Source: an archaeon
GTDB taxonomy: Archaea > Micrarchaeota > Micrarchaeia > Norongarragalinales > UBA97
Assembly: GCA_020057405.1 (NCBI GenBank)
Contig: JAGVFW010000009.1
Span: 1 to 61,366 of the forward strand
DNA: 61,366 bases
Direction of reading: 5' to 3'
Position numbers and translations under genes: made by a program. Under the pieces are notes generated by a model, which searched no databases, was not told the DNA's origin, and worked only from the letters and a program-made list of their open reading frames with translations. Shown in pieces: positions 18,778-51,744 of this stretch (the stretch's first letter is position 1; every line of letters begins with the position of its first letter).

Positions 18778-21624
18778 ATGACCGAAAACGCGTTTGACTT
18801 GCTGCACCCGAAAATCGCGGCCCTAGCGAAAGCGCGCTTTGGCGAGCCAAGCGAAGTGCAGGCGGCAGCTATTCCGCTTGCAATGGCGGGCGAGAATGTC
18901 CTGGCAATCGCGCCTACTGGAAGTGGCAAGATGGAGGCGGCATTCCTTCCCGTCGTTAGTCGACTACTCGAGAGCACTGAGGCAGGGGACAAGGAAGGCA
19001 TCCGTTTTCTTTACATCACGCCCCTGCGTGCCCTCAACCGCGACATGCAACATAGAATGGAGTACTGGGCGCATTTGCTGGGGCTCTCGCTTGGCGTGCG
19101 CCACGGTGACACGAAACAAAGCGAGCGCGTCAAGCAAAAAATCAAGCCCCCCCAAATCATGGTCACCACTCCCGAGAGCTTAAGCACGATTTTGATTTCC
19201 CCAGGCATCCGCGACGCCCTGCGCAATGTCAAGTGGGTTGTTGTTGACGAGATACACGAGCTAATCGACAGCAAGCGCGGCGTGCAGCTATCGCTCGCCC
19301 TTGAGAGGCTGCGGGAGCGCGTGAAAGAAAAGGGCCCTGTGCAAAAAACACCGCGCGATTTCCAAATCATCGGGCTTAGCGCGACTGTGGGCGACGAGGC
19401 GAAGGCAGCTGAGTTTCTTTCCCCCAAGACTAAAGTCGCGCGGGCGGACCTCAAGCGCAAGATTGAGCTCAAAGTCGAGTTTCCCACGGTTGTCAAGGAC
19501 GCCGAGTTTGCGGCAAAGTGGCGCCTTGAGGGAGAGGCGGCTGCGCGAGTAGAGCGCTTGTCCCAGCTCATTGAGGAAAGCAAGAGCATTCTCGTTTTCG
19601 TAAACACGAGGAGCATGGCTGAAAGCCTGAGTGCATTGCTTTTCCAAGTCGAGATATTGCGGGGAAAGGTGGGCGTGCACCACGGTTCGCTCGCTCGCGA
19701 AAGCAGGATTGCGACCGAAGCGGAATTCAAGCGCGAGGGAACTGAAGGCGAGAAGAAACTAAAGGCGATTGTGTGCACGAGCAGCCTTGAGCTCGGCATC
19801 GATGTTGGCCGCATCGACATGGTGGTGCAGTACCACTCGCCCCGGCAGGTGACGCGCCTGCTGCAGAGAGTGGGGCGAAGCGGGCACAGAAAGAACCTCG
19901 TGCCAAAAGGAATTGTGCTTGCTGTCGCCGGCGGGGACTGCGTTGAAACTGCGGTACTGGCGCATCGCGCGCTTGGGGGAAAACTCGAGGCCATCAGGCT
20001 GCCAATAAACTGCCTTGACGTGCTTGGCGCCCAAGTGTCGGGATTTGTGCTTGACAAGTGCATCAATCCCGACGACAAGCTTGACACGAAAAGCGTCTAC
20101 GAGATTTTCAAGCGCTCGCCCTACTACCGCACGCTAGAGTTTTCCGAGTTCATCATGGTCTGCAAACAATTGTCGCAACAGCGGCTCCTCGCCTTAAGCG
20201 AGGACTTTGCAAGCCTGGCTCCAGCAAGGGCGACGAAGCTCTATTACTACGAAAACTTGAGCACCATCCGCGACCTGAGGCGATACTTTGTCAAGGACGC
20301 GGAAAAGCGGCGCAATGTCGCCGTCCTCGACGAGGAGTTTGTCGCCGAGTACCTGCAGAAGGGCGTGACGTTCATTTCGCGGGGCGTGCCTTGGAAAGTG
20401 CTAAGCATCACAGACGACGAAGTCATTGTGGAGCAGGCCCAAGACTTTACCGCAAGCATTCCGGATTGGGTGGGCGAGGAGATTCCCGTTGTCTTTGACG
20501 CGACGCAGGAATTCGCCGAGCTTCTTGAGAAGACGGGCAAGGGGCTTTTGGGAAAGTACGAACTTCTGCGCGACTACTCGTGCGCAGGAAGCGCTGCTGA
20601 CCAGATTCTTGCTTATGCGGAAAAGCAGCGCAAGTACTTTTTGCCCCAGAAAGGAAAATTCTTCCTCGAGGAGAGCGGCAAGACCCTGCTTCTGCACACT
20701 TTTGCGGGCAACGAGGCAAACGAGGCCCTCGCGCGGGCCATAGCGGCGATGCTGTCGGCAAGCCGCGGGGAAAGCACGAGGACGCGCGCGAGTGCCTACT
20801 CGATTGCATTCGAATTTTCCCACCCGCCCGACTCGAAGAAATTCCTCAAGATACTTGCTGAACTCGACGCGGACTCTGTTGAAAAAATCTTGCGCAACGC
20901 CATCCCCCACACTGCGATTTTCAGGAGCAGGTTCGTTGACGTGGCAAAGCGGTTCGGCATGATTCGGCGGGACGCTGACCTGAAGAGCATCAACATCAAG
21001 CGGTTGGTTGAGGCGAGCACTGAGACTCCAATTTGGCGCGAGGCTCTAAGCGAAGTGCTCACCGAGAAGATGGACATCCCGCGGCTGCGGCAAATCATCA
21101 AGTGGCCAGTCGAGCAAGTGATTCGCAGCGACTTGTCGCCATTGGCTTCCGAGTTCGTCGACCTGTATGCCAGCAGGGAACTCCTCGCAGCCGTCGAGCC
21201 TACCGCGCAGCTAATTGATGCGTTCAAGAAAAATTTGCTCGGCCAGCGGATGAAGCTCGTGTGCAACTACTGCCTCAACACTTTCAGCATTTACCTCAGG
21301 GAAGCGCCGGAAAAGATTTCCTGCCCTCACTGCCAAAGCACGCAGTCAACTCTCGCCGAGTACAGAAAAGTGCTGGAAAAGTCCGCGAAGGGAGAGAAAT
21401 TAGAGAAAGGCGAGGGCAAGCTTCTTGAGGACGCACGGCGAGTGGAGTCGCAAATCGGCGCGTACGGAGGAAAGGCGCTCATCGCGCTTGCAACTTACGG
21501 AGTCGGCCCCGACAGCGCAAGCCGCGTGCTCTCAAGGCTCCGCGACGACGAAGCGGAGTTCTACAGAGACCTCCTAGAGCAACAAAAGCAGTTCATCGCC
21601 AACCGCAAGTACTGGAAGGCCTAA
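18778..21624 (+). CDS. lhr: Lhr-family superfamily 2 helicase
   Basis: The 948-residue protein is a large DEAD/DEAH ATPase: Q-like motif EPSEVQAAAIP, Walker A APTGSGKMEA (Met in place of the usual Thr/Glu after the Lys), TPLRAL, TPESL, DEIHEL, GLSATVGD, then FVNTRSMAE, SSLELGIDVG and QRVGRSGH. A long Lhr-specific winged-helix and beta-barrel region follows, and near residues 825-860 two Cys pairs (CNYCLNTF ... CPHCQST) form a zinc finger. Lhr proteins unwind nucleic acids and act in repair or RNA quality control. The stop overlaps the convergent gene. Confidence 0.88.
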   Translation: MTENAFDLLHPKIAALAKARFGEPSEVQAAAIPLAMAGENVLAIAPTGSGKMEAAFLPVVSRLLESTEAGDKEGIRFLYITPLRALNRDMQHRMEYWAHLLGLSLGVRHGDTKQSERVKQKIKPPQIMVTTPESLSTILISPGIRDALRNVKWVVVDEIHELIDSKRGVQLSLALERLRERVKEKGPVQKTPRDFQIIGLSATVGDEAKAAEFLSPKTKVARADLKRKIELKVEFPTVVKDAEFAAKWRLEGEAAARVERLSQLIEESKSILVFVNTRSMAESLSALLFQVEILRGKVGVHHGSLARESRIATEAEFKREGTEGEKKLKAIVCTSSLELGIDVGRIDMVVQYHSPRQVTRLLQRVGRSGHRKNLVPKGIVLAVAGGDCVETAVLAHRALGGKLEAIRLPINCLDVLGAQVSGFVLDKCINPDDKLDTKSVYEIFKRSPYYRTLEFSEFIMVCKQLSQQRLLALSEDFASLAPARATKLYYYENLSTIRDLRRYFVKDAEKRRNVAVLDEEFVAEYLQKGVTFISRGVPWKVLSITDDEVIVEQAQDFTASIPDWVGEEIPVVFDATQEFAELLEKTGKGLLGKYELLRDYSCAGSAADQILAYAEKQRKYFLPQKGKFFLEESGKTLLLHTFAGNEANEALARAIAAMLSASRGESTRTRASAYSIAFEFSHPPDSKKFLKILAELDADSVEKILRNAIPHTAIFRSRFVDVAKRFGMIRRDADLKSINIKRLVEASTETPIWREALSEVLTEKMDIPRLRQIIKWPVEQVIRSDLSPLASEFVDLYASRELLAAVEPTAQLIDAFKKNLLGQRMKLVCNYCLNTFSIYLREAPEKISCPHCQSTQSTLAEYRKVLEKSAKGEKLEKGEGKLLEDARRVESQIGAYGGKALIALATYGVGPDSASRVLSRLRDDEAEFYRDLLEQQKQFIANRKYWKA

Positions 21625-22333: not shown

Positions 22334-22876
22334 TCACGCTGCCTTGCCTAGTGGATAAACGCCCCTGCAAATGCGGCGGTGGTAAACGGTTAGGGGAATC
22401 TCGGTATTGAATGATATGCCCACTAGGGCGAGCTGCTTTTTGCGGGGCGTGGATGCTCCGACCGTGGTGCTAAAAGACTTGTAACCTAGGACTTTGAGCT
22501 TGTGGGCGGCGTGCTTCTCGGCAAAATAGCTCATCCCGATTATTGTCCCAGAATAGGGAGCCCGGTTCAAAATCTGGTAATCATCGGAAACTGCCTTAGA
22601 CCCCGCTCGTTCATAGGATACAAAGCCTAGGGCACGCTGGAAGCTGGACGGGTAGGACGCCTCCTGCAACGGCTTCAAAATGTGCTTTGGGATGCGCACG
22701 TGCTTTATCAAGGTAAGCGGCAACTCGCTGCTGCCTGACGCCTGGTTGTCGTCTGAAAACACGATGGTCGGGCTAGCCTTTCCGGAAGTCAGGTCAAACG
22801 CGAAAACCTCGTGGCCGCGCGTAGTGGTATGGTAAACCGCAAGATGCGTGATTGGCTTTGGTTCGGGCAACATCAT
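22334..22876 (-). CDS. Unknown protein of the E2 operon
   Basis: The 180-residue product (MMLPEPKPITHLAVYHTTTRGHEVFAFDLTSGK...) is beta-rich and basic, with no signal or membrane segment. Its start overlaps the stop of the 56-residue gene (ATGA at 22873-22876), which in turn overlaps the E2 gene, so the three are translationally coupled. I recognise no family. Features that may matter: a Ser/Thr-rich middle (GYKSFSTTVGASTPRKK) and a C-terminal Cys (RRICRGVYPLG). It could be a dedicated substrate, adaptor or regulator of the conjugation system; this is inference from position only. Confidence 0.6.
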   Translation of the reverse strand: MMLPEPKPITHLAVYHTTTRGHEVFAFDLTSGKASPTIVFSDDNQASGSSELPLTLIKHVRIPKHILKPLQEASYPSSFQRALGFVSYERAGSKAVSDDYQILNRAPYSGTIIGMSYFAEKHAAHKLKVLGYKSFSTTVGASTPRKKQLALVGISFNTEIPLTVYHRRICRGVYPLGKAA

Positions 22877-23043
22877 TTCACACCAATCATGGCTTTGAGC
22901 CTATCGATAAAAGAGACTTGCCTTGAATCGGCTACGCGTCCTTCAGGCTCCCACTTTTCAATGAACTGAACATCTTTTTCACTCGGCGGTGCCCGCTCCT
23001 CTAGAGCCAATTCCTTTACCGACAGCACGCGGGGTTTTGCCAT
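22873..23043 (-). CDS. 56-residue protein coupled to E2
   Basis: A short frame runs from ATG 23043 (overlapping the E2 stop as TAATG) to TGA 22873-22875 (overlapping the next ATG as ATGA). The product is acidic in the middle (EERAPPSEKDVQFIEKWEPEG) and ends QVSFIDRLKAMIGVK. That last part matches the C-terminal helix of the 254-residue protein at 24100-24864 (SFFYRLQKMLGLVK): SF-x2-RL-x2-M-[IL]-G. The tight coupling on both sides and the shared motif argue that it is real. A docking peptide or helper of the conjugation system is my inference. Confidence 0.65.
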   Translation of the reverse strand: MAKPRVLSVKELALEERAPPSEKDVQFIEKWEPEGRVADSRQVSFIDRLKAMIGVK

Positions 23044-23519
23044 TAGAGCACTATCCTCGGCTTGCCTGGCTTTGGCGCGAGTGCGCCTGGGGCGGCGAGG
23101 CCGTGTTCGACGAAATACTTTGCAGCTGATTTGTTAAGAGGGTCCGATGGGTTGGGGTGATCAAGCAGGTGGCGCAGTCCTTTGGCAAGCGAAACTAGAG
23201 TGAGGCCCTCGCTCCAGGCGTTGAGAATCTGGATGCACACTTTGCCGTCCTCGGCCCGGATGTTGGGGTGGAAAATTGGAGTCACCCACGTCACGTCGAT
23301 GCCACCCGCGTAAGGATAGTCGCGCAAAAGCTGCACGCGAACCTTGTGTGAATCGATTGTCTTTACCGTCCCGCCGTCAAGAAAGTAGCCTCGGCCGGAA
23401 AACTCGAGCACGTAGTCGGTGCGGTCGGCACTCGCAGTAAACTTGATGCCTGTGCGCGACAGCTCGGCAAACTCGTTGTCGATGCGGCGTTTCCAAATCG
23501 CTTGCGGAAGGCGGGGCAT
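23043..23519 (-). CDS. Ubiquitin-conjugating enzyme (E2)-like protein
   Basis: The 158-residue protein has a complete UBC fold in eukaryotic style. Helix 1 is at residues 6-22 (QAIWKRRIDNEFAEL), followed by the beta-meander with the P-x-x-x-P-like turn (RDYPYAGG). The HPN triad is at residues 84-86 (IFHPNI). The active cysteine is Cys95 in GKVCIQILNAWSEGLTL, with the Trp after it kept (Trp102). The helix block LAKGLRHLLDHPNPSDPLNKSAAKYF corresponds to the canonical 'L..PNP.DPLN..AA' segment. It should accept the modifier from E1 as a thioester. The start is ATG 23519, with the shared CAATTTATTG box 27 bases upstream; an ATG at 23540 would ignore that promoter. Confidence 0.9.
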   Translation of the reverse strand: MPRLPQAIWKRRIDNEFAELSRTGIKFTASADRTDYVLEFSGRGYFLDGGTVKTIDSHKVRVQLLRDYPYAGGIDVTWVTPIFHPNIRAEDGKVCIQILNAWSEGLTLVSLAKGLRHLLDHPNPSDPLNKSAAKYFVEHGLAAPGALAPKPGKPRIVL

Positions 23520-23541
23520 AGAAGAAAACCAGTATCGCAAG

Positions 23542-23551
23542 CAATTTATTG
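23542..23551. promoter_or_regulatory. Shared symmetric TATA-like box, E2 operon and divergent gene
   Basis: CAATTTATTG is centred at 23546.5, midway between the divergent starts at 23519 and 23573, about 27 bases from each. It reads as a TATA box on both strands (CAATAAATTG on the minus). Confidence 0.5.
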
Positions 23552-23572
23552 CCTGCGGCTGTTCGTTTTTGC

Positions 23573-23806
23573 ATGGACTTGCCTGAAGGCCTAGGATGGT
23601 ACGGCATTGCCGCCGTTTTTGCGGCCTACGCGGGCAACAGCCTCGCTTATTTCAACGCACAAAACCCACTCTACCCTGCGCTCAACTTCACGGGCGCCCT
23701 TGCGCTTATCGTCGACACGCGAGCGAAAAAAGACTGGCCCCTGTTCGCACTAAACCTTGTTTGGGCTGCGATTGCGGCTTACTCGCTTGCGAGAATCTAC
23801 TTTTAG
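23573..23806 (+). CDS. Small two-helix membrane protein
   Basis: The 77-residue product (MDLPEGLGWYGIAAVFAAYAG...) has hydrophobic segments at about residues 9-24, 33-47 and 56-75, the first and last clearly membrane-spanning. It is divergent from E2 and its stop codon overlaps that of the ubiquitin-like gene. ATG 23573 is favoured by the shared TATA box. Function and any link to the conjugation system are unknown. Confidence 0.55.
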   Translation: MDLPEGLGWYGIAAVFAAYAGNSLAYFNAQNPLYPALNFTGALALIVDTRAKKDWPLFALNLVWAAIAAYSLARIYF

Positions 23807-24045
23807 CCGCCGGTAGGATCGGGCATCAGAATTAGCTTGGCGCCCTCGGCCACTCCGGCTTCCTTTAGCGAGAGGTCGGGGTTGAGGATCTTGTTGTCGG
23901 CAGTTGCAAGCACGAAGCGGTCCTTGAGTTGGAGGTTCTCGGCCAGCACTTCAAGCACGCTGCCGACCGTGAACTGTGGCTCGACCGCCATAGTGATTTC
24001 CTTGCCGCTAGTTGAATGAGTCACCGTAACGTTGTATTCGACCAT
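23803..24045 (-). CDS. Ubiquitin-like modifier protein ending in Gly-Gly
   Basis: The 80-residue protein reads as a beta-grasp fold: strand 1 YNVTVTHS, strand 2 KEITMAVE, helix TVGSVLEVLAENLQL, strand FVLATAD, a turn with NKILNPDLSLKEAGVAEGAKLILM (the 'L..D.tL.E.Gi..g..l.l' pattern of ubiquitin). The chain ends DPTGG and then stop, so the Gly-Gly is exposed without processing. Placed between E2 and JAMM/RING genes, it is the obvious modifier. It starts at ATG 24045 with a GAGGGG site and the shared TATA 27 bases upstream. Lysines 15, 41, 52 and 61 could in principle carry chains. Confidence 0.85.
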   Translation of the reverse strand: MVEYNVTVTHSTSGKEITMAVEPQFTVGSVLEVLAENLQLKDRFVLATADNKILNPDLSLKEAGVAEGAKLILMPDPTGG

Positions 24046-24067
24046 CGCCGTTAGCCCCTCTGAAAGC

Positions 24068-24076
24068 TATTTATTA
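24068..24076. promoter_or_regulatory. Shared TATA-like box, modifier gene and JAMM/RING operon
   Basis: TATTTATTA is centred at 24072, midway between the divergent starts 24045 (minus) and 24100 (plus), so the modifier and the JAMM/RING operon are probably fired from one region and may be co-regulated. Confidence 0.5.
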
Positions 24077-24099
24077 CGCCCGATTAATAACCTTGCTGC

Positions 24100-24864
24100 A
24101 TGGACAAGCCAAAAATCGTTGCAATCCACCGGCCCGAGGACGAAAGCGAAGTCCCGCCAGAGCGCGAACCGCAGCAAGAGCCATCGGCAGAGCAACAGAA
24201 AACTCCGACAAATGTTGAAACGCAGCCGGTTGAAACTCCCCAAACCGGCGGGGCAAACCCCGAAGCTGCGGTTCAAACGGCACCACAAGCTGAAGCAAAG
24301 CCCGAGCGGCCGGAAAAGCAGGCTGTGGGCCCCGACGGGCTCACCGACCTCGAACGCAGCGTGCTTGACGAGATGAGAAAACGCGGGGAAATAAGCCTCA
24401 ACGAAGAACGCGCAATAGCGCAGGAGGCAAGGGCCAGAAACGACGCGCTTAGCCAACCCACGGCGCCACCCGCACCGAAAACCGAAAGGCCAGTGGGCGC
24501 AATCGAAGCTCCCGCGGAAAAGCCGGCTGGCGAAATGGAAGTCGCTTCAGAAGAACAGCATCCCCGCGTGATTGCGGGGGCCCCGCCTTGGGTGAGCAGG
24601 CAGGCAAAGCCCATCATCAAGCAGACGCGAGTAAACGGCGTCGTCGTAAGCGAGCGGGGAGAAAGCGCAGGCAAGCAAACCGAAGACCACTTGGCCCAAC
24701 CCCAGGCGAGCGGGGACCACACGCAAGACGAACGCGAGCGCGCAGCCGACTTGGCGCGAAAGATTTACGCGCGCAAACAACGCGAAAAGAGTTTCTTTTA
24801 CCGCCTACAGAAAATGCTTGGCCTTGTGAAGGAAGAACCGCTGGTGACCCAACGGAATGATTGA
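24100..24864 (+). CDS. Disordered Pro/Glu/Gln-rich protein of the ubiquitin-like locus
   Basis: The 254-residue protein is mostly low complexity (PPEREPQQEPSAEQQKTPT and so on), broken by one helical block (LTDLERSVLDEMRKRGEISLNEERAIAQEARAR, about residues 81-113) and a basic C-terminal helix (AADLARKIYARKQREKSFFYRLQKMLGLVK, about 217-246). That helix shares SF-x2-RL-x2-M-x-G with the 56-residue protein of the E2 operon. Its stop overlaps the JAMM start by eight bases. It might be a scaffold or adaptor holding the conjugation parts together; no named family. Confidence 0.6.
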   Translation: MDKPKIVAIHRPEDESEVPPEREPQQEPSAEQQKTPTNVETQPVETPQTGGANPEAAVQTAPQAEAKPERPEKQAVGPDGLTDLERSVLDEMRKRGEISLNEERAIAQEARARNDALSQPTAPPAPKTERPVGAIEAPAEKPAGEMEVASEEQHPRVIAGAPPWVSRQAKPIIKQTRVNGVVVSERGESAGKQTEDHLAQPQASGDHTQDERERAADLARKIYARKQREKSFFYRLQKMLGLVKEEPLVTQRND

Positions 24865-25315
24865 AGCTTATTTCGAGGAGCCCGTGATGCGGGCGGCCCA
24901 AGAGCACTGCAAAAAAGCTGCGGGCTTGCGCCTTGAGGCAATGGGCCTGCTTTCGGGCACTGCAGCCAAATGGCAGGGCACCACTTACGTCGTAATTGAC
25001 GAGTACATCACCGCAGAGAACGACGCGACTGCAGTGAGCGTACGGTTCGGCAGGGAAGCGTTCGGCGCCCTTGCGGCAAGAATAAACGAGGCTGCAGGCC
25101 GGGGCAAGCTCGTCGTGGGCTGGGCGCACGCGCACCCAAACTACGGGTGCTTCCTCTCGTCGACAGACGTGCGAACGCAGCGCCAGTACTTTGCCGAGGA
25201 ATTCAACATCGCCCTCGTAATCGACCCCGTGCGCGGGGAAAAGCGAGTCTTCAAGCTTTCGCAAGATGCAAAAGGATACCGGCCCGCCGGCTATGCCGTT
25301 GTTGCCAGAAAGTGA
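24857..25315 (+). CDS. JAMM/MPN+ metalloprotease, Rpn11-like deubiquitinase
   Basis: The 152-residue protein is a lone MPN+ domain. Catalytic Glu27 lies in EAMGLLSG. The zinc motif is at residues 91-104, HAHPNYGCFLSSTD: two His, the Ser at 101 and Asp104. This stretch is very close to eukaryotic Rpn11 (HSHPGFGCWLSGVD), including the Cys. The domain would cut isopeptide bonds after Gly-Gly. As the modifier here needs no trimming, release of the modifier from targets is the likely job. It overlaps the preceding gene by 8 bases and the RING gene by 23-50 bases. Confidence 0.9.
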   Translation: MIEAYFEEPVMRAAQEHCKKAAGLRLEAMGLLSGTAAKWQGTTYVVIDEYITAENDATAVSVRFGREAFGALAARINEAAGRGKLVVGWAHAHPNYGCFLSSTDVRTQRQYFAEEFNIALVIDPVRGEKRVFKLSQDAKGYRPAGYAVVARK

Positions 25316-26111
25316 GCCGACCGCGCCGGCAATACAGCAAGCGCAACCCACAAAAGGAGAAAAGAAATTGAAATCGCCAAAGCCCCGAAAGGCACGAAAA
25401 ACACGCCTGAAGCTCACGCGCTTTGACAAGGACGCAATCGAACTAATGCGCAAGGGCACCCGAAGCGCAGGGAGGCTCGCTGCACTCATGGGCCTTGACT
25501 CGACGCAAGTGCGAGGCAGGCTCCTCGAGCTAGAGTCCCACGGCATCATCGCGTTTGACGCAAGCGAACCCGACAAAGTCAGCCTCACGGTCAAGGCATA
25601 CAATGACCTCAAGCTCTCGCCAATAGAGGAAAAAAAGCAGGAACCGGCACCAAACGTTCCAGTAAGACACCCCCCCGCTATTGAAGCGCCGCAAGCCCCG
25701 ACCCAAAAGCCTCCCGCTCAAACTTCCGGCATCAGCGAACGCATCGACTTGGCCGAGCTATTGCGCCGGGGCGCGCCAAAAGACCCGCTTTTTGTCCGAA
25801 GGAAAGTCGGCGGAGACGAAGTGATTGAGGAGAAGAAAATCGACGCGCAAACCACTGAGCTTTTGAAGAAAACCATTGCCGAATACGAGGGCGAAAAATG
25901 CGAACTATGCCGAGGCGAGTTCCGCCTCGCGCTTGCAGACGGCCACCCGAAATACGGGCATTGCTTCTGCGGCGCCGCCTACCACCAGGACTGTTACGAC
26001 AGCCTCTTGGACGACAAGGGCAGCTGCGCGCGCTGCGGCAGGACAATGGAAATCATTTTAGACAGGCAAAGCGAAGAAGCAGTCAGGGCGATTAGAAAGT
26101 TGTTTGAGTAG
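25266..26111 (+). CDS. Winged-helix plus RING-like zinc-finger protein, candidate E3
   Basis: The 281-residue protein (272 if ATG 25293 is the start) has three parts. Residues 48-116 form a winged helix (RFDKDAIELMRKGTRSAGRLAALMG then STQVRGRLLELESHGIIAF). A Pro-rich linker follows. Residues 211-260 form a RING-like finger with ligands Cys212, Cys215, Cys233, Cys235, His240, Cys243, Cys254 and Cys257, including C-x-CG-x3-H-x2-C. RING proteins recruit the loaded E2 to a target. The DNA-binding-like half could recruit it to chromatin. No ribosome site separates the two candidate starts; both overlap the JAMM gene. Confidence 0.78.
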   Translation: MQKDTGPPAMPLLPESEPTAPAIQQAQPTKGEKKLKSPKPRKARKTRLKLTRFDKDAIELMRKGTRSAGRLAALMGLDSTQVRGRLLELESHGIIAFDASEPDKVSLTVKAYNDLKLSPIEEKKQEPAPNVPVRHPPAIEAPQAPTQKPPAQTSGISERIDLAELLRRGAPKDPLFVRRKVGGDEVIEEKKIDAQTTELLKKTIAEYEGEKCELCRGEFRLALADGHPKYGHCFCGAAYHQDCYDSLLDDKGSCARCGRTMEIILDRQSEEAVRAIRKLFE

Positions 26112-26122
26112 AGGTGGATAAA

Positions 26123-26440
26123 ATGAGGAATATACTTAGACCGAAAACGCTGAGGGCAGCGGAACAGGCATTCAAGCGCCTTCACGGGACGGTTTACTAC
26201 GGGTCCAGCGGACTGTCTTACGAAGTAACCGAGGGTCCGCAAGAACTGGAAAACGGGGAAGGGCATTACATCCACCTAGCGCCCAACAAACACCCCGCAA
26301 GTAGCGCGGAACACTCATCCTACGAAATTATCCTTAACTCGGAAATCCAGCGCCTTGCGAAAAATATGAAAGTTGGCCTCGGAATAATCACCCATCCATC
26401 TGAAAAACGCGATCTGCGAATAGCCTTCCTTAAAGACTAG
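26123..26440 (+). CDS. Unknown protein of the JAMM/RING operon
   Basis: The 105-residue product (MRNILRPKTLRAAEQAFKRLHGTVYYG...) starts at ATG 26123 with a clear GAGGTGG site 5 bases before it; a GTG at 26114 lies inside that site and is rejected. It follows the RING gene by 11 bases. A helix leads into strands (YIHLAPN, SYEIILNSE, VGLGIITHP, RDLRIAFLKD), suggesting a compact alpha/beta domain. Not recognised. Confidence 0.6.
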   Translation: MRNILRPKTLRAAEQAFKRLHGTVYYGSSGLSYEVTEGPQELENGEGHYIHLAPNKHPASSAEHSSYEIILNSEIQRLAKNMKVGLGIITHPSEKRDLRIAFLKD

Positions 26441-26451
26441 CCGTGAACCGA

Positions 26452-26769
26452 ATGCCTTGGAAACTGTGGGGAAATAAACCGGCCGAAACGCCCAAGCTTA
26501 AGCCCCTCCAACAGAGTGCAAGGGAAGCCAAGCTTTCGGCTTTCCGCAGCCTAAGGGAAAGCAACGTGCTTGTTGAAGACCATCTTTCAACAGACAACGA
26601 GCATTGCCTCAAAGTGACCCTTAAAACGCACGACGACGACCTTACCCGGGAGCTTGCCAACACTATTGCAGACAAGCACGCAAGCGAAAAGCAGGTAAAT
26701 AACAACTCGAGCGTGATTGGTACCGAAATGATCCTCGCGTTTAAAGCAACTGCCAGAAAAGCGCGCTAG
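26452..26769 (+). CDS. Unknown protein of the JAMM/RING operon
   Basis: The 105-residue product (MPWKLWGNKPAETPKLKPLQQ...) follows the previous gene by 11 bases; a GTGA site lies 5 bases before ATG 26452 (an in-frame GTG at 26443 is possible). After a Pro/Lys-rich leader come a helix (AREAKLSAFRSLRESNVL), a strand (HCLKVTLKTHD), a helix (LTRELANTIADKHASEKQV) and a strand (SVIGTEMILAFKATA). It ends against the E1 gene. Not recognised. Confidence 0.58.
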   Translation: MPWKLWGNKPAETPKLKPLQQSAREAKLSAFRSLRESNVLVEDHLSTDNEHCLKVTLKTHDDDLTRELANTIADKHASEKQVNNNSSVIGTEMILAFKATARKAR

Positions 26770-27620
26770 CCGTGCACCGGACAGCTCTCCCGCTTTGCAA
26801 TCTCAAAAACAGCGCTCTCGTTAGTCAGGCCATTGTAGAACCAGTACTTGCCAGCTAGGCCGGACTCCGGCAGGTCGAACTTGCGGGGCTTGTTTTCGCG
26901 CGCTACGCGCTTTTGCGTCAAGTGGTTGACCACGCCACCGACAGGCGGCTCCTCGCTTTTCGCGTGCGCCATTTTGACAAACTCGCTTGCCATCACGCCA
27001 GCGACTATGCTCGTCGTGGTCGGAAGCGCGGGCATTTTGGGGTCGACGAACTCAAGCATCTCGCCGGTGCAGCTGTACTTTCGCCACAAAAACGAATAGT
27101 CGCGGGGGCTAAGGCCGCACTCAAGGCAACTGCCGCCGTCGACAACCTGCACTTTGCCGTTAAAACCCGCCGTGCCGCCGTCGACGAGCGGAGTTTTTCC
27201 ATAGCAATGCGCATTCGCGTGCAGCCGCGCGCCAAGGTTGTCAAGGCAGCTAAAGGCGTAATCGAATTTTGAAAAGAAATCCTCGTCGAGAGTCTCGACG
27301 CGCTCGAGGACGGGTTCGATTTGCGCAGACGGGTTAAGCCGGCCGGCGGATGCTGCAAGAGCCTCGGCCTTCTTCGCGCCCTTTTGCGCGTCCTCGTGAG
27401 TGAAGAACACGCAGCGGTTGAGGTTTGCGGTGACGACCGTGTCAAAGTCGACTATCGAAATTTTTCGCACGCCAAGCTGCAGCAAGAGCTTCGCCGCCTC
27501 GTTGCCAAGGGCGCCCGCACCTATTAGCACGCAATGCGACTGCTCGACTGCAGTCTGCTGCCAGCCGCGGATGCGCCGCTGCCTGTCCCATTGGTCCGCG
27601 TCGATGAGGTCCATTGCCAT
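26766..27620 (-). CDS. E1-like modifier-activating enzyme (ThiF/MoeB/Uba family)
   Basis: The 284-residue adenylating enzyme has: nucleotide loop GAGALG (34-39), D58-x-D60 of VDFDTVV, NLNR (66-69), the SCLDNLGARLHAN stretch typical of E1 proteins (Asp127, Arg132), and GTAGFNGKVQVV. Cys165/Cys168 (CLEC) and Cys280/His283 (ESCPVH) look like one zinc site with His in place of the fourth Cys. Cys184 in KYSCTGEM is the best candidate for the thioester cysteine, followed by MPALPTTTSIVAG. It should adenylate the modifier's C-terminal Gly and pass it to E2. The start is ATG 27620, with a CTTTAATGC box 28 bases upstream. Confidence 0.85.
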   Translation of the reverse strand: MAMDLIDADQWDRQRRIRGWQQTAVEQSHCVLIGAGALGNEAAKLLLQLGVRKISIVDFDTVVTANLNRCVFFTHEDAQKGAKKAEALAASAGRLNPSAQIEPVLERVETLDEDFFSKFDYAFSCLDNLGARLHANAHCYGKTPLVDGGTAGFNGKVQVVDGGSCLECGLSPRDYSFLWRKYSCTGEMLEFVDPKMPALPTTTSIVAGVMASEFVKMAHAKSEEPPVGGVVNHLTQKRVARENKPRKFDLPESGLAGKYWFYNGLTNESAVFEIAKRESCPVHG

Positions 27621-27656: not shown

Positions 27657-28484
27657 ATGCCAGGAGCAATAATCGCATACACCACCGAAGACCCTGCCGG
27701 AAGCAACGTCGCCAGGCGATTGCACGAGCTCTACGGCTTTAAGCCCTCGGAAATGATTCTCGAGGCGGGAACCGAATTGCGCGCTTGGGAGTACCATAGC
27801 GTCAAGCTTGTTGAATTGCACACTCGGCTGTCTAACGCAAGCGAGTACCTCTCGCAAGTCCCGTCATTTGCTGCTGGCCTGGTTATCTTCGCCTCAAGAC
27901 ACAAGGCCGAGAGCGGCAGGCCCTCGTTTACAGTCCACTCTACGGGCAATTGGGGTGACGACCCGCAATGGGGCGGCAACCCGCACGAGCTTGGCAAGAC
28001 AAGCGCCAAGGCGATTGCCTCTGCCTACCGCTGGTTCAAGGACAATCCTCACGATGGATTCGAACTCTCGCTTGAGGCGACCCACCACGGTCCCACGTCA
28101 CTGCATTCGCCAAGCGTGTTTGTAGAGCTTGGCAGTTCGGAAAAAGAATGGAAGAAGACCGACGCAGGCGGGCACCTGGCAAGCTGCGTGATGGCAGTTG
28201 CGCAGAATTGGTCGTCAGAACAAGGCCGGACCGCCCTCGGCATGGGCGGCACGCACTACGCAAGCAAGTTCAACCCGCTTGAGGGAAAAGAGTTCAACTT
28301 CTCATTCATTTGCCCCAAGCACGCCCTCGATAATTTCTCAACGCAGATGCTCAAGCAGGCGATTGCCAAAACTGCTGAGAAAGTCGAGTGCATAGTGCTT
28401 GACTGGAAGGGAACGACGCTGCCCCAAAGGGACGCCGTGCGCGCGGCTGCGCAAGAGTGCGGACTCGAAGTCGTGCGCGAGTAA
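27657..28484 (+). CDS. dtdA: D-aminoacyl-tRNA deacylase, archaeal type (DTD2)
   Basis: DtdA removes D-amino acids wrongly loaded on tRNA. The 275-residue protein carries the family hallmarks: AIIAYTTEDPAGSNVA at the N terminus, LEATHHGPTSLHSPSVFVELGSSEKEW in the middle, and the strongly conserved ALGMGGTHYASKF. Length is typical. A TATA box 27 bases before the ATG suggests a leaderless mRNA. It is divergent from the E1 gene and not obviously part of the ubiquitin-like system. Confidence 0.93.
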   Translation: MPGAIIAYTTEDPAGSNVARRLHELYGFKPSEMILEAGTELRAWEYHSVKLVELHTRLSNASEYLSQVPSFAAGLVIFASRHKAESGRPSFTVHSTGNWGDDPQWGGNPHELGKTSAKAIASAYRWFKDNPHDGFELSLEATHHGPTSLHSPSVFVELGSSEKEWKKTDAGGHLASCVMAVAQNWSSEQGRTALGMGGTHYASKFNPLEGKEFNFSFICPKHALDNFSTQMLKQAIAKTAEKVECIVLDWKGTTLPQRDAVRAAAQECGLEVVRE

Positions 28485-29368: not shown

Positions 29369-30634
29369 CTAGAGCCACGCGCTCATGCGCTTCTGCGCAA
29401 GCACTTGGCTTCTCTTCACATACTCGCTTACAGGATGGCGCAGGCGGCTCGAGAGAATCTGCAGCGCCTCCTGAAGTGAGCCGCACTTGACAGGCGTTGA
29501 CCGCATTGCCTGACGCACATTCTCACGCACTTGCCACACGCCCATCGGCACTACGTAACCCTCGCTCACTTCTCGGAAAACGACCGCGCGCGCCTGCTTG
29601 CGCATTGAATGCAATCCTTCAATTACGCCAAGCCTTGACGCGTAGTAGCCGCCGCCCTCTAGTTCCGCATACCGCGTGCGCCCCTCGAAGGGTTCGTGCT
29701 CCTCGATGATGTCGGGCGCAGCTTCGGCCCACGGCGTCGACGGGGCCCAGCTCTCGAAGTTTTCAAACTCCCACTTGCCGGGCATCAGGAGGACTTCAAA
29801 GTGGTTGTGCAGAAAATCGCTCGAGTAAATTCGGTACTGGCCGAGCTCGTCAAAATTCCTTATCGACTCGAGCAAGTGCTTGCCGATGATGTCGTCGGCA
29901 CCCGTGATGCTCCACTTCGTCGGCACAAGGCGCCGCTCTTTTCCAAGCACGCCGGCACTCAAGAGTTTCTGGACGTAATAGTAGTCGAGGCCGTGCTGCA
30001 GCATTTCGGGAACAGCCTCACGCACGAGCAGCTTGTCCTCGATTAAGTCGTCCACAATTGACGGAATGCGAGGGTTGTCGGCTAAATCAAACTTGCGCAG
30101 CTGCCCGCTTGGGCCGCTTGGCTGCGATTGGGGCGAGAACATCATCGAGAACGCGGGCTTTGTCTCAAAACCGACTTCGACATCAACGGGCTTAAATGAA
30201 ATCACCGCGTCCTGCACATCAGAAAGATAACGCGAACTACCCTTTACCGAATGCGCGCGCCTCCCCGTGACGAGGGACGAGCGCATGCGAATTATTTCTC
30301 CGTAATCTAGGCTCGTCCATTTTGATGGCGAGTCGATGAAATCCGCATTCGCAGTCTCGTCAACGCTGATGAGCGGCCCGACTGAAACGTTTGGATAACC
30401 GTACTCGCCGACGAAAACACCAGGCGGCGACGGGCCGAACATCTCTTGGGAAAGCTTGGATTCAACAACAGGCGCGGCAAGCAATTTAGCAAGCACGGGC
30501 GAAGTCTGTTCGAGGTTAGAGAAAAGCTGATTCTTGTACTTGATTGCGGCACGGCCGTTGATGCGCACTATCTCCAGGTCCTTGAATACGGAACGCTTTG
30601 GAAGGGGAAAGCGGGCGATTGCGCGGCCAGCCAT
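29369..30634 (-). CDS. nreA: NreA-type DNA repair protein
   Basis: The 421-residue protein belongs to the archaeal Nre family (DUF650/DUF651), known to aid survival after DNA crosslinking damage and to bind PCNA. The diagnostic PGVFVGEYGYPNVSVGPL lies near residue 70-90, then SPSKWTSLDYGEIIRMRSSL and KPVDVEVGF. The C terminus QKRMSAWL fits a PCNA-interacting box (Q-x2-[MLI]-x2-aromatic-hydrophobic). Some relatives carry an N-terminal zinc finger; this one starts directly at the core. It follows the upstream gene by 7 bases. Confidence 0.88.
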   Translation of the reverse strand: MAGRAIARFPLPKRSVFKDLEIVRINGRAAIKYKNQLFSNLEQTSPVLAKLLAAPVVESKLSQEMFGPSPPGVFVGEYGYPNVSVGPLISVDETANADFIDSPSKWTSLDYGEIIRMRSSLVTGRRAHSVKGSSRYLSDVQDAVISFKPVDVEVGFETKPAFSMMFSPQSQPSGPSGQLRKFDLADNPRIPSIVDDLIEDKLLVREAVPEMLQHGLDYYYVQKLLSAGVLGKERRLVPTKWSITGADDIIGKHLLESIRNFDELGQYRIYSSDFLHNHFEVLLMPGKWEFENFESWAPSTPWAEAAPDIIEEHEPFEGRTRYAELEGGGYYASRLGVIEGLHSMRKQARAVVFREVSEGYVVPMGVWQVRENVRQAMRSTPVKCGSLQEALQILSSRLRHPVSEYVKRSQVLAQKRMSAWL

Positions 30635-51636: not shown

Positions 51637-51744
51637 CGGGGCCACGGGGATTTGAACCCCGGACTGAAGCTGTTTGCCTCACGGGCTTGCCTAAACCGCG
51701 TGAATTCGCAAGCTCCTGTTTTATCCAGGCTGAACTATGGCCCC
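51637..51744 (-). tRNA. tRNA-Arg (anticodon GCG) with 34-nt intron
   Basis: Read on the minus strand: acceptor GGGGCCA/TGGCCCC (7 bp), T8-A9, D arm GTTC...AAAC (one mismatch), anticodon stem GGAGC/GCTTC, loop TTGCGAA, T arm CGGGG-TTCAAAT-CCCCG. The intron is 51705-51672, between positions 37 and 38. A textbook bulge-helix-bulge is present: central helix TTGC/GCAA, 3-base bulges GAA and ACA, and inner helix TTCACG/CGTGAG. The spliced tRNA has 74 bases and reads CGC. No CCA is encoded after discriminator G, so the CCA enzyme at 58788 is needed. Confidence 0.9.

What the first reader, a model, noticed from the sequence alone, without database searches (positions are those of the whole stretch)
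22334..27620. A complete eukaryote-like ubiquitin conjugation locus in an archaeal genome
Within 5.3 kb lie an E2 with HPN triad and active Cys95, a beta-grasp modifier ending in Gly-Gly, an Rpn11-like JAMM protease, a RING-like zinc-finger protein and an E1-like adenylating enzyme. Seen directly: all the motifs. Known: Caldiarchaeum-type archaea encode a ubiquitin operon with E1, E2, RING and JAMM, and bacteria have related sets. Inferred: this locus is a working system and differs in gene order (three units on both strands), has no modifier precursor tail, a RING part fused to a winged helix, and five or more unknown companion proteins. I cannot tell whether this lineage has been reported to carry it.
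Basis: partly seen in the sequence, partly recalled or inferred. Interest (0 to 1): 0.96.

Follow-up and report, generated by a model that had tools for sequence, protein, structure and literature searches.

The report
A separate archaeal ubiquitin-like pathway
A small-genome archaeon and most sequenced members of its order carry the genes for a likely ubiquitin-like protein-tagging pathway, whose enzymes group with those of two other archaeal lineages and which carries a short repeated motif that likely docks its parts together.

Summary
Within 22.9-27.6 kb lie a ubiquitin-fold modifier ending in Gly-Gly, a minimal E1, an E2 (HPN, Cys95), an Rpn11-like JAMM protease with the full metal motif, and a winged-helix protein with an eight-ligand RING-like end. 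The host is a Micrarchaeota member (DPANN), most likely Norongarragalinales. E2 and modifier occur in the same 26 of 29 genomes of the order; UQ_con was found in 0 of the 272 other genomes of the phylum. Unlike the published Caldiarchaeum operon, the E1 lacks a C-terminal extension and the RING part is fused. E1 and E2 group with sets from one Asgard family and from a methanogen-containing class, apart from canonical Asgard enzymes; no Caldiarchaeum sequence was in my trees. Two companions are conserved: a 56-residue microprotein and a disordered adaptor. The microprotein's ~22-residue box (PRIV...ExxPP) is fused to JAMM in many loci of the third group; PRIV also ends the E2 tail and recurs in most adaptors. 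Predicted: E1-E2-RING conjugation reversed by JAMM, with PRIV peptides as docking tags, perhaps for the modifier. Nothing is biochemically tested. I found no report of it in the listings and passages seen.

The parts
22873..23043 (-). 56-residue microprotein 'B56'; start codon overlaps the E2 stop
   Evidence: Homologue in 23 of 26 order loci, window included, and 19 of 21 Asgard loci; HMM searches both ways; third codon position the most changed in 7 of 8 pairs compared
22984..23034 (-). PRIV-ExxPP box in B56 (PRVLSVKELALEERAPP; the window reads PRVL)
   Evidence: Same box at the JAMM N-terminus in many loci of a third archaeal class; coordinates checked
23043..23519 (-). E2 conjugating enzyme, HPN 84-86, Cys95
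   Evidence: UQ_con 62.8 bits; invariant residues 26 of 26; profile matches UBE2H at 1.4e-18
23049..23060 (-). PRIV motif in the E2 C-terminal tail
   Evidence: In the last 20 residues in 26 of 26 order E2s; coordinates checked
23803..24045 (-). Ubiquitin-fold modifier ending exactly in Gly79-Gly80
   Evidence: Model and fold search; GG invariant in 24
24100..24864 (+). Disordered-looking adaptor: PRIV motifs at 24109-24120 (PKIV) and 24562-24573 (PRVI), Pro/Glu-rich linker, C-terminal region with a basic amphipathic-looking end; the window copy lacks the RDxxP-like motif that others have
   Evidence: Adaptor ORF beside JAMM in 23 loci plus L070; strict PRIV in 20 of 24
24857..25315 (+). JAMM metalloprotease (Rpn11-like)
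   Evidence: JAB 36 bits; full motif invariant; profile matches Rpn11
25266..26111 (+). Winged-helix protein with C-terminal RING-like zinc domain (candidate E3); first Met overlaps JAMM, true start may lie later
   Evidence: Eight invariant ligands in 21; model and fold search
26766..27620 (-). Minimal E1 (ThiF), conserved Cys184, zinc-type Cys/His set
   Evidence: ThiF 153.9 bits; profile matches yeast Uba1 7e-35; tree
22334..22876 (-). 180-aa protein downstream of B56, not found in the other loci
   Evidence: No Pfam match; no match in 25 other loci
26114..26769 (+). Two 108-aa proteins after the RING gene, not found in the other loci
   Evidence: No Pfam match; no match in 25 other loci

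Best explanation
This locus encodes a set of ubiquitin-type parts (a modifier ending in Gly-Gly, E1, E2, a RING-like protein and a JAMM protease), conserved in most genomes of its archaeal order, which is predicted to tag proteins with the modifier and to remove it again. Predicted steps: E1 adenylates Gly80 of the modifier and carries it on Cys184; E2 takes it on Cys95; the winged-helix RING-like protein would act as E3 towards substrate lysines; the JAMM protease would cut the modifier off and, in relatives whose modifier has a tail, mature it. E1 and E2 group with sets from one Asgard family and a methanogen-containing class, apart from canonical Asgard enzymes (shown, with few canonical rows and no Caldiarchaeum row). 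A ~22-residue PRIV...ExxPP box is fused to JAMM in many loci of that class and is a free microprotein (B56) in the other two groups (shown), so B56 likely acts with the protease in trans (inferred). PRIV alone also ends the E2 tail and recurs in most adaptors (shown). I read PRIV as a docking peptide, most likely a SUMO-interacting-motif-like strand that grips the modifier, so that E2, deconjugase and adaptor share it (inferred, about 0.4).
For: Domains and active sites. Modifier fold. E2 and modifier in the same 26 of 29 order genomes; E1 in 25 of 29; recurrent gene order. Grouping: E1s of the three groups together 100/97 in 67 rows, E2s 99/96 in 72 rows. Box: an HMM of 11 JAMM N-terminal segments against 6763 ORFs of the 26 order loci has B56 as its eight best ORFs (3.9e-6 to 8.6e-3; window 4.6e-5), the ninth being the L048 adaptor; against 3474 ORFs of 21 Asgard loci the best 16 are all the B56-like protein, though only three are below 0.01. 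PRIV: E2 tails 26 of 26 in the order, 11 of 22 in class T; adaptors 34 motifs against a shuffled mean of 0.98, maximum 6 in 500. Proteasome family match in 29 of 29 order genomes.
Against: No biochemistry. The RING domain is weak by profile and by fold search (no match at E<=0.001; RING chains at about 0.02-0.04), so E3 activity is a guess. Asgard E2 tails have no PRIV (0 of 21; 18 of 21 end in an acidic-hydrophobic stretch), and most class-T loci of family f59 lack it on E2. A strict box pattern fits only 7 of 22 class-T JAMMs, and the 11 segments used for the HMM were picked after I had seen them. Four of 24 adaptors have no strict PRIV. PRIV is proline-basic, unlike the usual acidic SUMO-interacting motif (recalled). 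Nothing tests what PRIV binds. The trees hold only three canonical rows, all from one Asgard phylum.
Confidence: 0.7

Rival explanations
1. It is an ordinary member of the Caldiarchaeum-type archaeal ubiquitin operon, merely rearranged.
For: Same kinds of parts; the modifier's first fold match is Caldiarchaeum ubiquitin; JAMM matches Rpn11, Caldiarchaeum's included; JAMM lies next to the operon there too (PMC5654768, passages).
Against: E1 and E2 fall outside the canonical Asgard rows with support; no C-terminal E1 extension; RING fused to a winged helix; B56 and adaptor conserved. No Caldiarchaeum E1 or E2 was in the trees.
Confidence: 0.16
2. The PRIV peptides dock onto an enzyme (JAMM core or E1), not onto the modifier; B56 would be a split-off regulatory segment of JAMM, and the E2 tail would recruit JAMM or E1.
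For: The box is fused to JAMM in class T; the adaptor gene overlaps the JAMM gene.
Against: Does not by itself explain several PRIV copies in one adaptor or PRIV on E2 in cis.
Confidence: 0.4
3. Sulfur carrier or SAMP/Urm1-like role, with E1 alone doing the chemistry.
For: E1 is small, as in ThiF/MoeB; its profile also matches MoeB and ThiF.
Against: E2 with an intact active site is kept in the same genomes as the modifier; full JAMM motif and eight-ligand RING-like domain.
Confidence: 0.05
4. A phage-defence conjugation system of the bacterial Bil kind.
For: E1 matches the E1 part of PADLOC E1-E2 models (7.5e-16).
Against: E2, modifier, RING-like protein, adaptor and B56 match no PADLOC model at E<=0.01 and JAMM only weakly (6.3e-5); syntenic inheritance in the order.
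Confidence: 0.04

Closest known systems
Caldiarchaeum subterraneum / canonical Asgard ubiquitin operon (PMC5654768, PMC6043591)
   Same: Ubiquitin-fold modifier, E1, E2, RING-type protein and Rpn11-like JAMM encoded together
   Different: E1 ends at its zinc motif CPVHG; E1/E2 apart from canonical Asgard rows; RING-like domain fused to a winged helix instead of a small separate RING protein; no residues after GG in the window; PRIV box, B56 and adaptor
'JAMM-3' group and 'Cluster III' named in PMC6043591 and PMC5654768
   Same: JAMM-3 is a third prokaryotic JAMM group nearer Rpn11; that paper notes operons with ubiquitin, E1 and E2 homologues among Rpn11-near JAMMs. Either group may include some of these sets
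   Different: Members not seen: supplements were not readable here; the box, B56, adaptor and this lineage are not mentioned in the passages read
SUMO with SUMO-interacting motifs (recalled)
   Same: Modifier family matches Rad60-SLD in 20 of 24; short hydrophobic strand motif shared by several pathway proteins
   Different: PRIV is proline-basic; no binding shown
UFM1 E1 UBA5 (function recalled; profile match)
   Same: Small single-domain E1
   Different: Profile matches Uba1 and the NEDD8 E1 better
Bacterial Bil conjugation (recalled)
   Same: E1, E2, JAMM and ubiquitin-like protein together
   Different: Only E1 clearly matches defence models, JAMM weakly; no RING in Bil (recalled)

Membership tests
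Ubiquitin-type conjugation set | Modifier with ubiquitin fold and C-terminal Gly-Gly | tested here: met
Ubiquitin-type conjugation set | E1 ThiF fold with a conserved candidate catalytic Cys | tested here: met
Ubiquitin-type conjugation set | E2 UBC fold with HPN and active Cys | tested here: met
Ubiquitin-type conjugation set | RING E3 | tested here: inconclusive
   Eight invariant ligands; weak Pfam and fold matches
Ubiquitin-type conjugation set | JAMM isopeptidase motif | tested here: met
Ubiquitin-type conjugation set | Covalent modification of proteins | not testable with these tools
   Needs purified proteins or cells
Caldiarchaeum-type operon | E1 with a C-terminal ubiquitin-like extension (figure legend of PMC5654768) | tested here: not met
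   Window E1 ends at CPVHG; the canonical E1 of L071, an Asgard-phylum genome, runs on past its zinc motif
Caldiarchaeum-type operon | Small separate RING protein | tested here: not met
   RING-like domain fused to a winged helix
Caldiarchaeum-type operon | Modifier made as a precursor with residues after GG | tested here: not met
   Ends at GG in the window and in 18 of 24 family members, window included; 6 have a tail
Caldiarchaeum-type operon | E1 and E2 group with Caldiarchaeum enzymes | tested here: inconclusive
   Apart from three canonical Asgard rows; no Caldiarchaeum E1 or E2 was available
Bil defence system | Match of all four components to defence models | tested here: not met
   Only E1 well and JAMM weakly
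SUMO/SIM reading system | Motif binds the modifier | not testable with these tools
   No complex prediction or assay available

The most novel reading that the evidence does not exclude
Archaea have a third ubiquitin pathway, separate from the canonical Caldiarchaeum/Asgard one and from SAMP/Urm1, spanning DPANN, Asgard and a methanogen-bearing class; it uses SUMO-like logic, in which short strand motifs on the E2, on a JAMM-partner microprotein and on a multivalent disordered adaptor read the modifier, so that writer, eraser and reader share one docking code.
Probability: 0.27. Interest if true: 0.92.

Novelty: new variant of a known kind. Interest (0 to 1): 0.77.

Why it matters
It puts a ubiquitin-type gene set into small-genome DPANN archaea as a trait of nearly a whole order, and suggests that archaeal ubiquitin enzymes come in at least two lineages. 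The PRIV-ExxPP box gives a concrete, testable handle on how a minimal E1 without an E2-binding extension, an E2, a deconjugase and an adaptor find each other. If the third group is Methanomassiliicoccales-like, cultured members may exist, so the pathway could be studied in living cells (inference).

Tried and rejected
Rejected: an accidental or contaminant locus (synteny in the order). Rejected: pick-up by one genome alone (26 of 29 genomes). Rejected: all unknown companions being parts; four stretches had no match in the other 25 loci. Rejected: PRIV as a conjugation site, because the Lys before the Pro is not conserved.

Corrected on checking: the comparison locus L071 (genome G309), which my scripts label 'Caldi', is not Caldiarchaeum; one search lists G309 in the same phylum as the Asgard genome G391. 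So the trees hold no Caldiarchaeum row. For this I lowered the best explanation from 0.72 to 0.70 and the novel case from 0.30 to 0.27, and raised the rival 'ordinary Caldiarchaeum type' from 0.12 to 0.16.

Led nowhere: a PRIV-like DNA pattern in the own genome (6 hits, 1 in E2; the other five, read, look unrelated or chance; the pattern covers Arg/Ser forms only). Viral contigs with the modifier profile: 19 pattern matches, none confirmed. The full-length RING model is poor overall (pTM 0.36) and gave no PDB match at E<=0.001. The class of G341 could not be named; McrA in 6 of 13 of its genomes tested only suggests Methanomassiliicoccales/Thermoplasmata. Paper searches showed no report of this set in Norongarragalinales or of the box, but several lists were capped (15 of 308; 12 of 41; 30 of 63) and most papers were seen only as listings; subscription papers, preprints and supplements were not searched. 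An automatic pick of adaptor ORFs mis-picked L037 and missed L038 and L047, so one search used ORFs read by eye.

Rows dropped: in the E1 tree 3 of 8 other-ThiF loci (L127, L131, L137) gave no ORF passing my filter; in the E2 tree one second E2-like ORF of L071 was left out; the JAMM N-terminal HMM used 11 of 22 class-T loci, chosen after viewing; of 24 Asgard genomes with a strong E2 match 21 loci were examined (not G521, G532, G546).
Full report
Lineage. The window is contig 1 of a 1.22 Mb, 17-contig genome, 90.6% complete. Where named, protein relatives of its E2 are Micrarchaeota or Norongarragalinales archaea, and the one named genomic locus found is Micrarchaeota archaeon UBA95. I take the host to be a Norongarragalinales member (inference).

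The parts are real. Pfam finds UQ_con, ThiF and JAB over threshold. Alignments of relatives from the order show invariant active residues: E2 H84 P85 N86 C95 (26 sequences); modifier G79 G80 (24); E1 C184 plus a C165/C168/C280/H283 zinc-type set (20); JAMM E27 H91 H93 S101 D104 (23); RING-like C212 C215 C233 C235 H240 C243 C254 C257 (21). The modifier alone is sub-threshold in Pfam, but its family matches SUMO-like, YukD and ubiquitin models, and its model has Caldiarchaeum ubiquitin first in a near-tie with other ubiquitins and SUMOs. The JAMM profile matches yeast Rpn11 best (5e-22) and Caldiarchaeum Rpn11 at 2e-19. The RING-like end is the weakest call: 3 of 21 members match zf-RING_2 and 3 of 21 Prok-RING_1 at E<=0.1, and RING chains appear in the fold search only at about 0.02-0.04 beside MarR-type winged helices.

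The set is nearly universal in the order. E2 occurs in 26 of 29 order genomes, own included, the modifier in the same 26, E1 in 25; a proteasome-family match occurs in 29 of 29, two or more in 27. G008, G022 and G024 lack E2 and modifier; they are 79, 61 and 62% complete, and G024 has the E1. In the phylum UQ_con is found in 26 of 301 genomes, all in this order. Of 26 loci (window plus 25), 26 hold E2, 24 the modifier, 23 B56, 23 JAMM, 23 RING-like and 20 E1, mostly in the same order and orientation. Exceptions: in G010 the E1 is on another contig, in G014 it is on another contig while the E2 contig ends nearby, in G005 modifier and E1 lie about 11 and 18 kb from E2 on the same contig, and in G004 the set is spread over three contigs. 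The genes at 22334-22876, 23549-23806 and 26114-26769 have no match in the other loci.

Two companions are parts. B56 is a 56-residue protein whose start overlaps the E2 stop. The adaptor (24100-24864) precedes JAMM and overlaps it. Adaptors vary greatly in length. In 24 of them 20 hold at least one strict P[RK][IV][IV] and 14 at least two; 34 in all, against a shuffled mean of 0.98; 20 fit an RDxxP-like pattern and 20 a C-terminal helix-like pattern. L034, L035, L037 and L038 have no strict PRIV, and the window's own adaptor lacks the RDxxP-like motif. The same four-residue motif lies in the last 20 residues of E2 in 26 of 26 order loci and opens most B56 proteins; the window's own B56 reads PRVL.

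The box crosses phyla. A search of 395 relatives gave four more genomes with E2: G309, G341, G361, G391. G391 is Asgard by the names of its E2 relatives, and G309 belongs to the same phylum. The related E2 occurs strongly in 24 of 227 genomes of that phylum, 22 of them in one family. In 21 of those loci there are E2 (21), E1 (19), JAMM (19), modifier (19), a B56-like protein (19), a GTPase-like protein (18) and multi-pass membrane proteins with a RING-like end (15) (the last two named by eye). An HMM of the Asgard B56-like proteins, run on all ORFs of the 26 order loci, returns 17 ORFs, of which 16 are B56, the best twelve included (best 6.5e-7; the window's B56 is not among them). In the class of G341, E2 occurs in 77 of 200 sampled genomes; 22 loci hold E2 22, modifier 22, JAMM 22 and E1 20. 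There the B56 box sits at the N-terminus of many JAMMs. An HMM of 11 such segments (of 22 loci, chosen after viewing), run on 6763 ORFs of the order loci, has B56 as its eight best ORFs (window 4.6e-5) and an adaptor ninth; on 3474 ORFs of the Asgard loci its best 16 are all the B56-like protein, three of them below 0.01. The B56 HMM against the class-T ORFs gives four rows at E<=0.2, all JAMM, and none on reversed ORFs. This is a Rosetta-stone fusion: B56 likely works with JAMM.

Results against a universal motif. Asgard E2 tails of this kind carry no PRIV (0 of 21); 18 of 21 end in an acidic-hydrophobic stretch such as DDIIIIDD. Class-T E2 tails carry strict PRIV in 11 of 22 (13 relaxed); methanogen family f59 mostly lacks it. 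A strict box pattern fits B56 in 20 of 23, the Asgard protein in 17 of 19 and class-T JAMM in 7 of 22.

Trees. In an E1 tree of 67 rows the order, class-T and Asgard-B E1s form one group (100/97), apart from three canonical E1s of the Asgard phylum (two of G391, one of G309) and five other ThiF-family rows; order and class T are sisters (99/91); the bootstrap had not quite settled. In an E2 tree of 72 rows the same three groups stand together (99/96); relations inside are unresolved. Canonical rows are few, some are long-branched, and none is from Caldiarchaeum, so the split should be redone. The canonical E1 of L071 runs on past its zinc motif, this one does not.

Mechanism. Shown: fold or family matches, invariant catalytic residues, co-occurrence, synteny, shared box. 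Inferred: the E1-E2-E3 relay, JAMM reversal, B56 acting with JAMM, PRIV as docking peptide. I favour the modifier as receptor because writer (E2), eraser-linked peptide (B56 or JAMM N-terminus) and a multivalent adaptor all carry the motif, the modifier family scores as SUMO-like in 20 of 24, and the Asgard E2 tail looks like a SUMO-interacting motif (resemblance recalled, not tested). Docking on JAMM or E1 is about as likely.

Known work. PMC5654768 (passages) and PMC6043591 (abstract, sections 6 and 15, passages) describe the Caldiarchaeum system; the former tells of an E1 with a C-terminal ubiquitin-like domain, a small RING protein and a nine-residue pro-peptide. They name a 'Cluster III' and a 'JAMM-3' group whose members I could not read. 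PMC4327156 (passages) reports ubiquitin-related genes in Crenarchaeota, Aigarchaeota and one euryarchaeote. PMC11354881 (passages) has no hit for Micrarchae or DPANN. PMC12892359 and PMC8561730 (passages) treat Norongarragalinales; the word search finds only 'ubiquitously' in the first and nothing in the second. Searches (mostly seen as capped listings) gave no report of this set or of the box.

Verdict. It is a new variant of a known kind.

Noticed in passing
window 51637-51744 (-): Rfam tRNA match of 108 nt, 45.1 bits, where ARAGORN finds no tRNA: probably an intron-bearing archaeal tRNA.
   Followed up: no
window 18778-21624, 27657-28484 and 29369-30634: The locus sits between an Lhr-type helicase and an Nre protein, with a D-aminoacyl-tRNA deacylase: found in 15, 14 and 16 of 26 loci respectively. 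A link to DNA repair is possible (Nre role recalled).
   Followed up: partly
L076-L096 (Asgard): GTPase-like genes (18 of 21) and multi-pass membrane proteins ending in a RING-like zinc domain (15 of 21) flank the related set, named by eye: candidate membrane E3s.
   Followed up: partly
Asgard E2 C-termini, L076-L096: E2 tails end in an acidic-hydrophobic stretch such as DDIIIIDD in 18 of 21, unlike PRIV.
   Followed up: partly
L094 and L095: In Asgard family f95 the E2 was found without the other parts nearby; both fetched stretches reach a contig end.
   Followed up: no
G024:C41:2501-3253: E1 present although E2 and modifier were not found; the genome is 62% complete.
   Followed up: no
L038:10828-11589 and L053:1282-1944: Extra ORFs between modifier and JAMM, of kinase-like and methyltransferase-like look by eye.
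   Followed up: no
window 22873-23043 and 24100-24864; L030, L032, L036, L039, L040, L046, L048, L049: By eye, some B56 proteins end in a basic amphipathic-looking helix like that ending the adaptor (for example SFIDRLKAMIGVK), suggesting a common target or membrane contact.
   Followed up: partly
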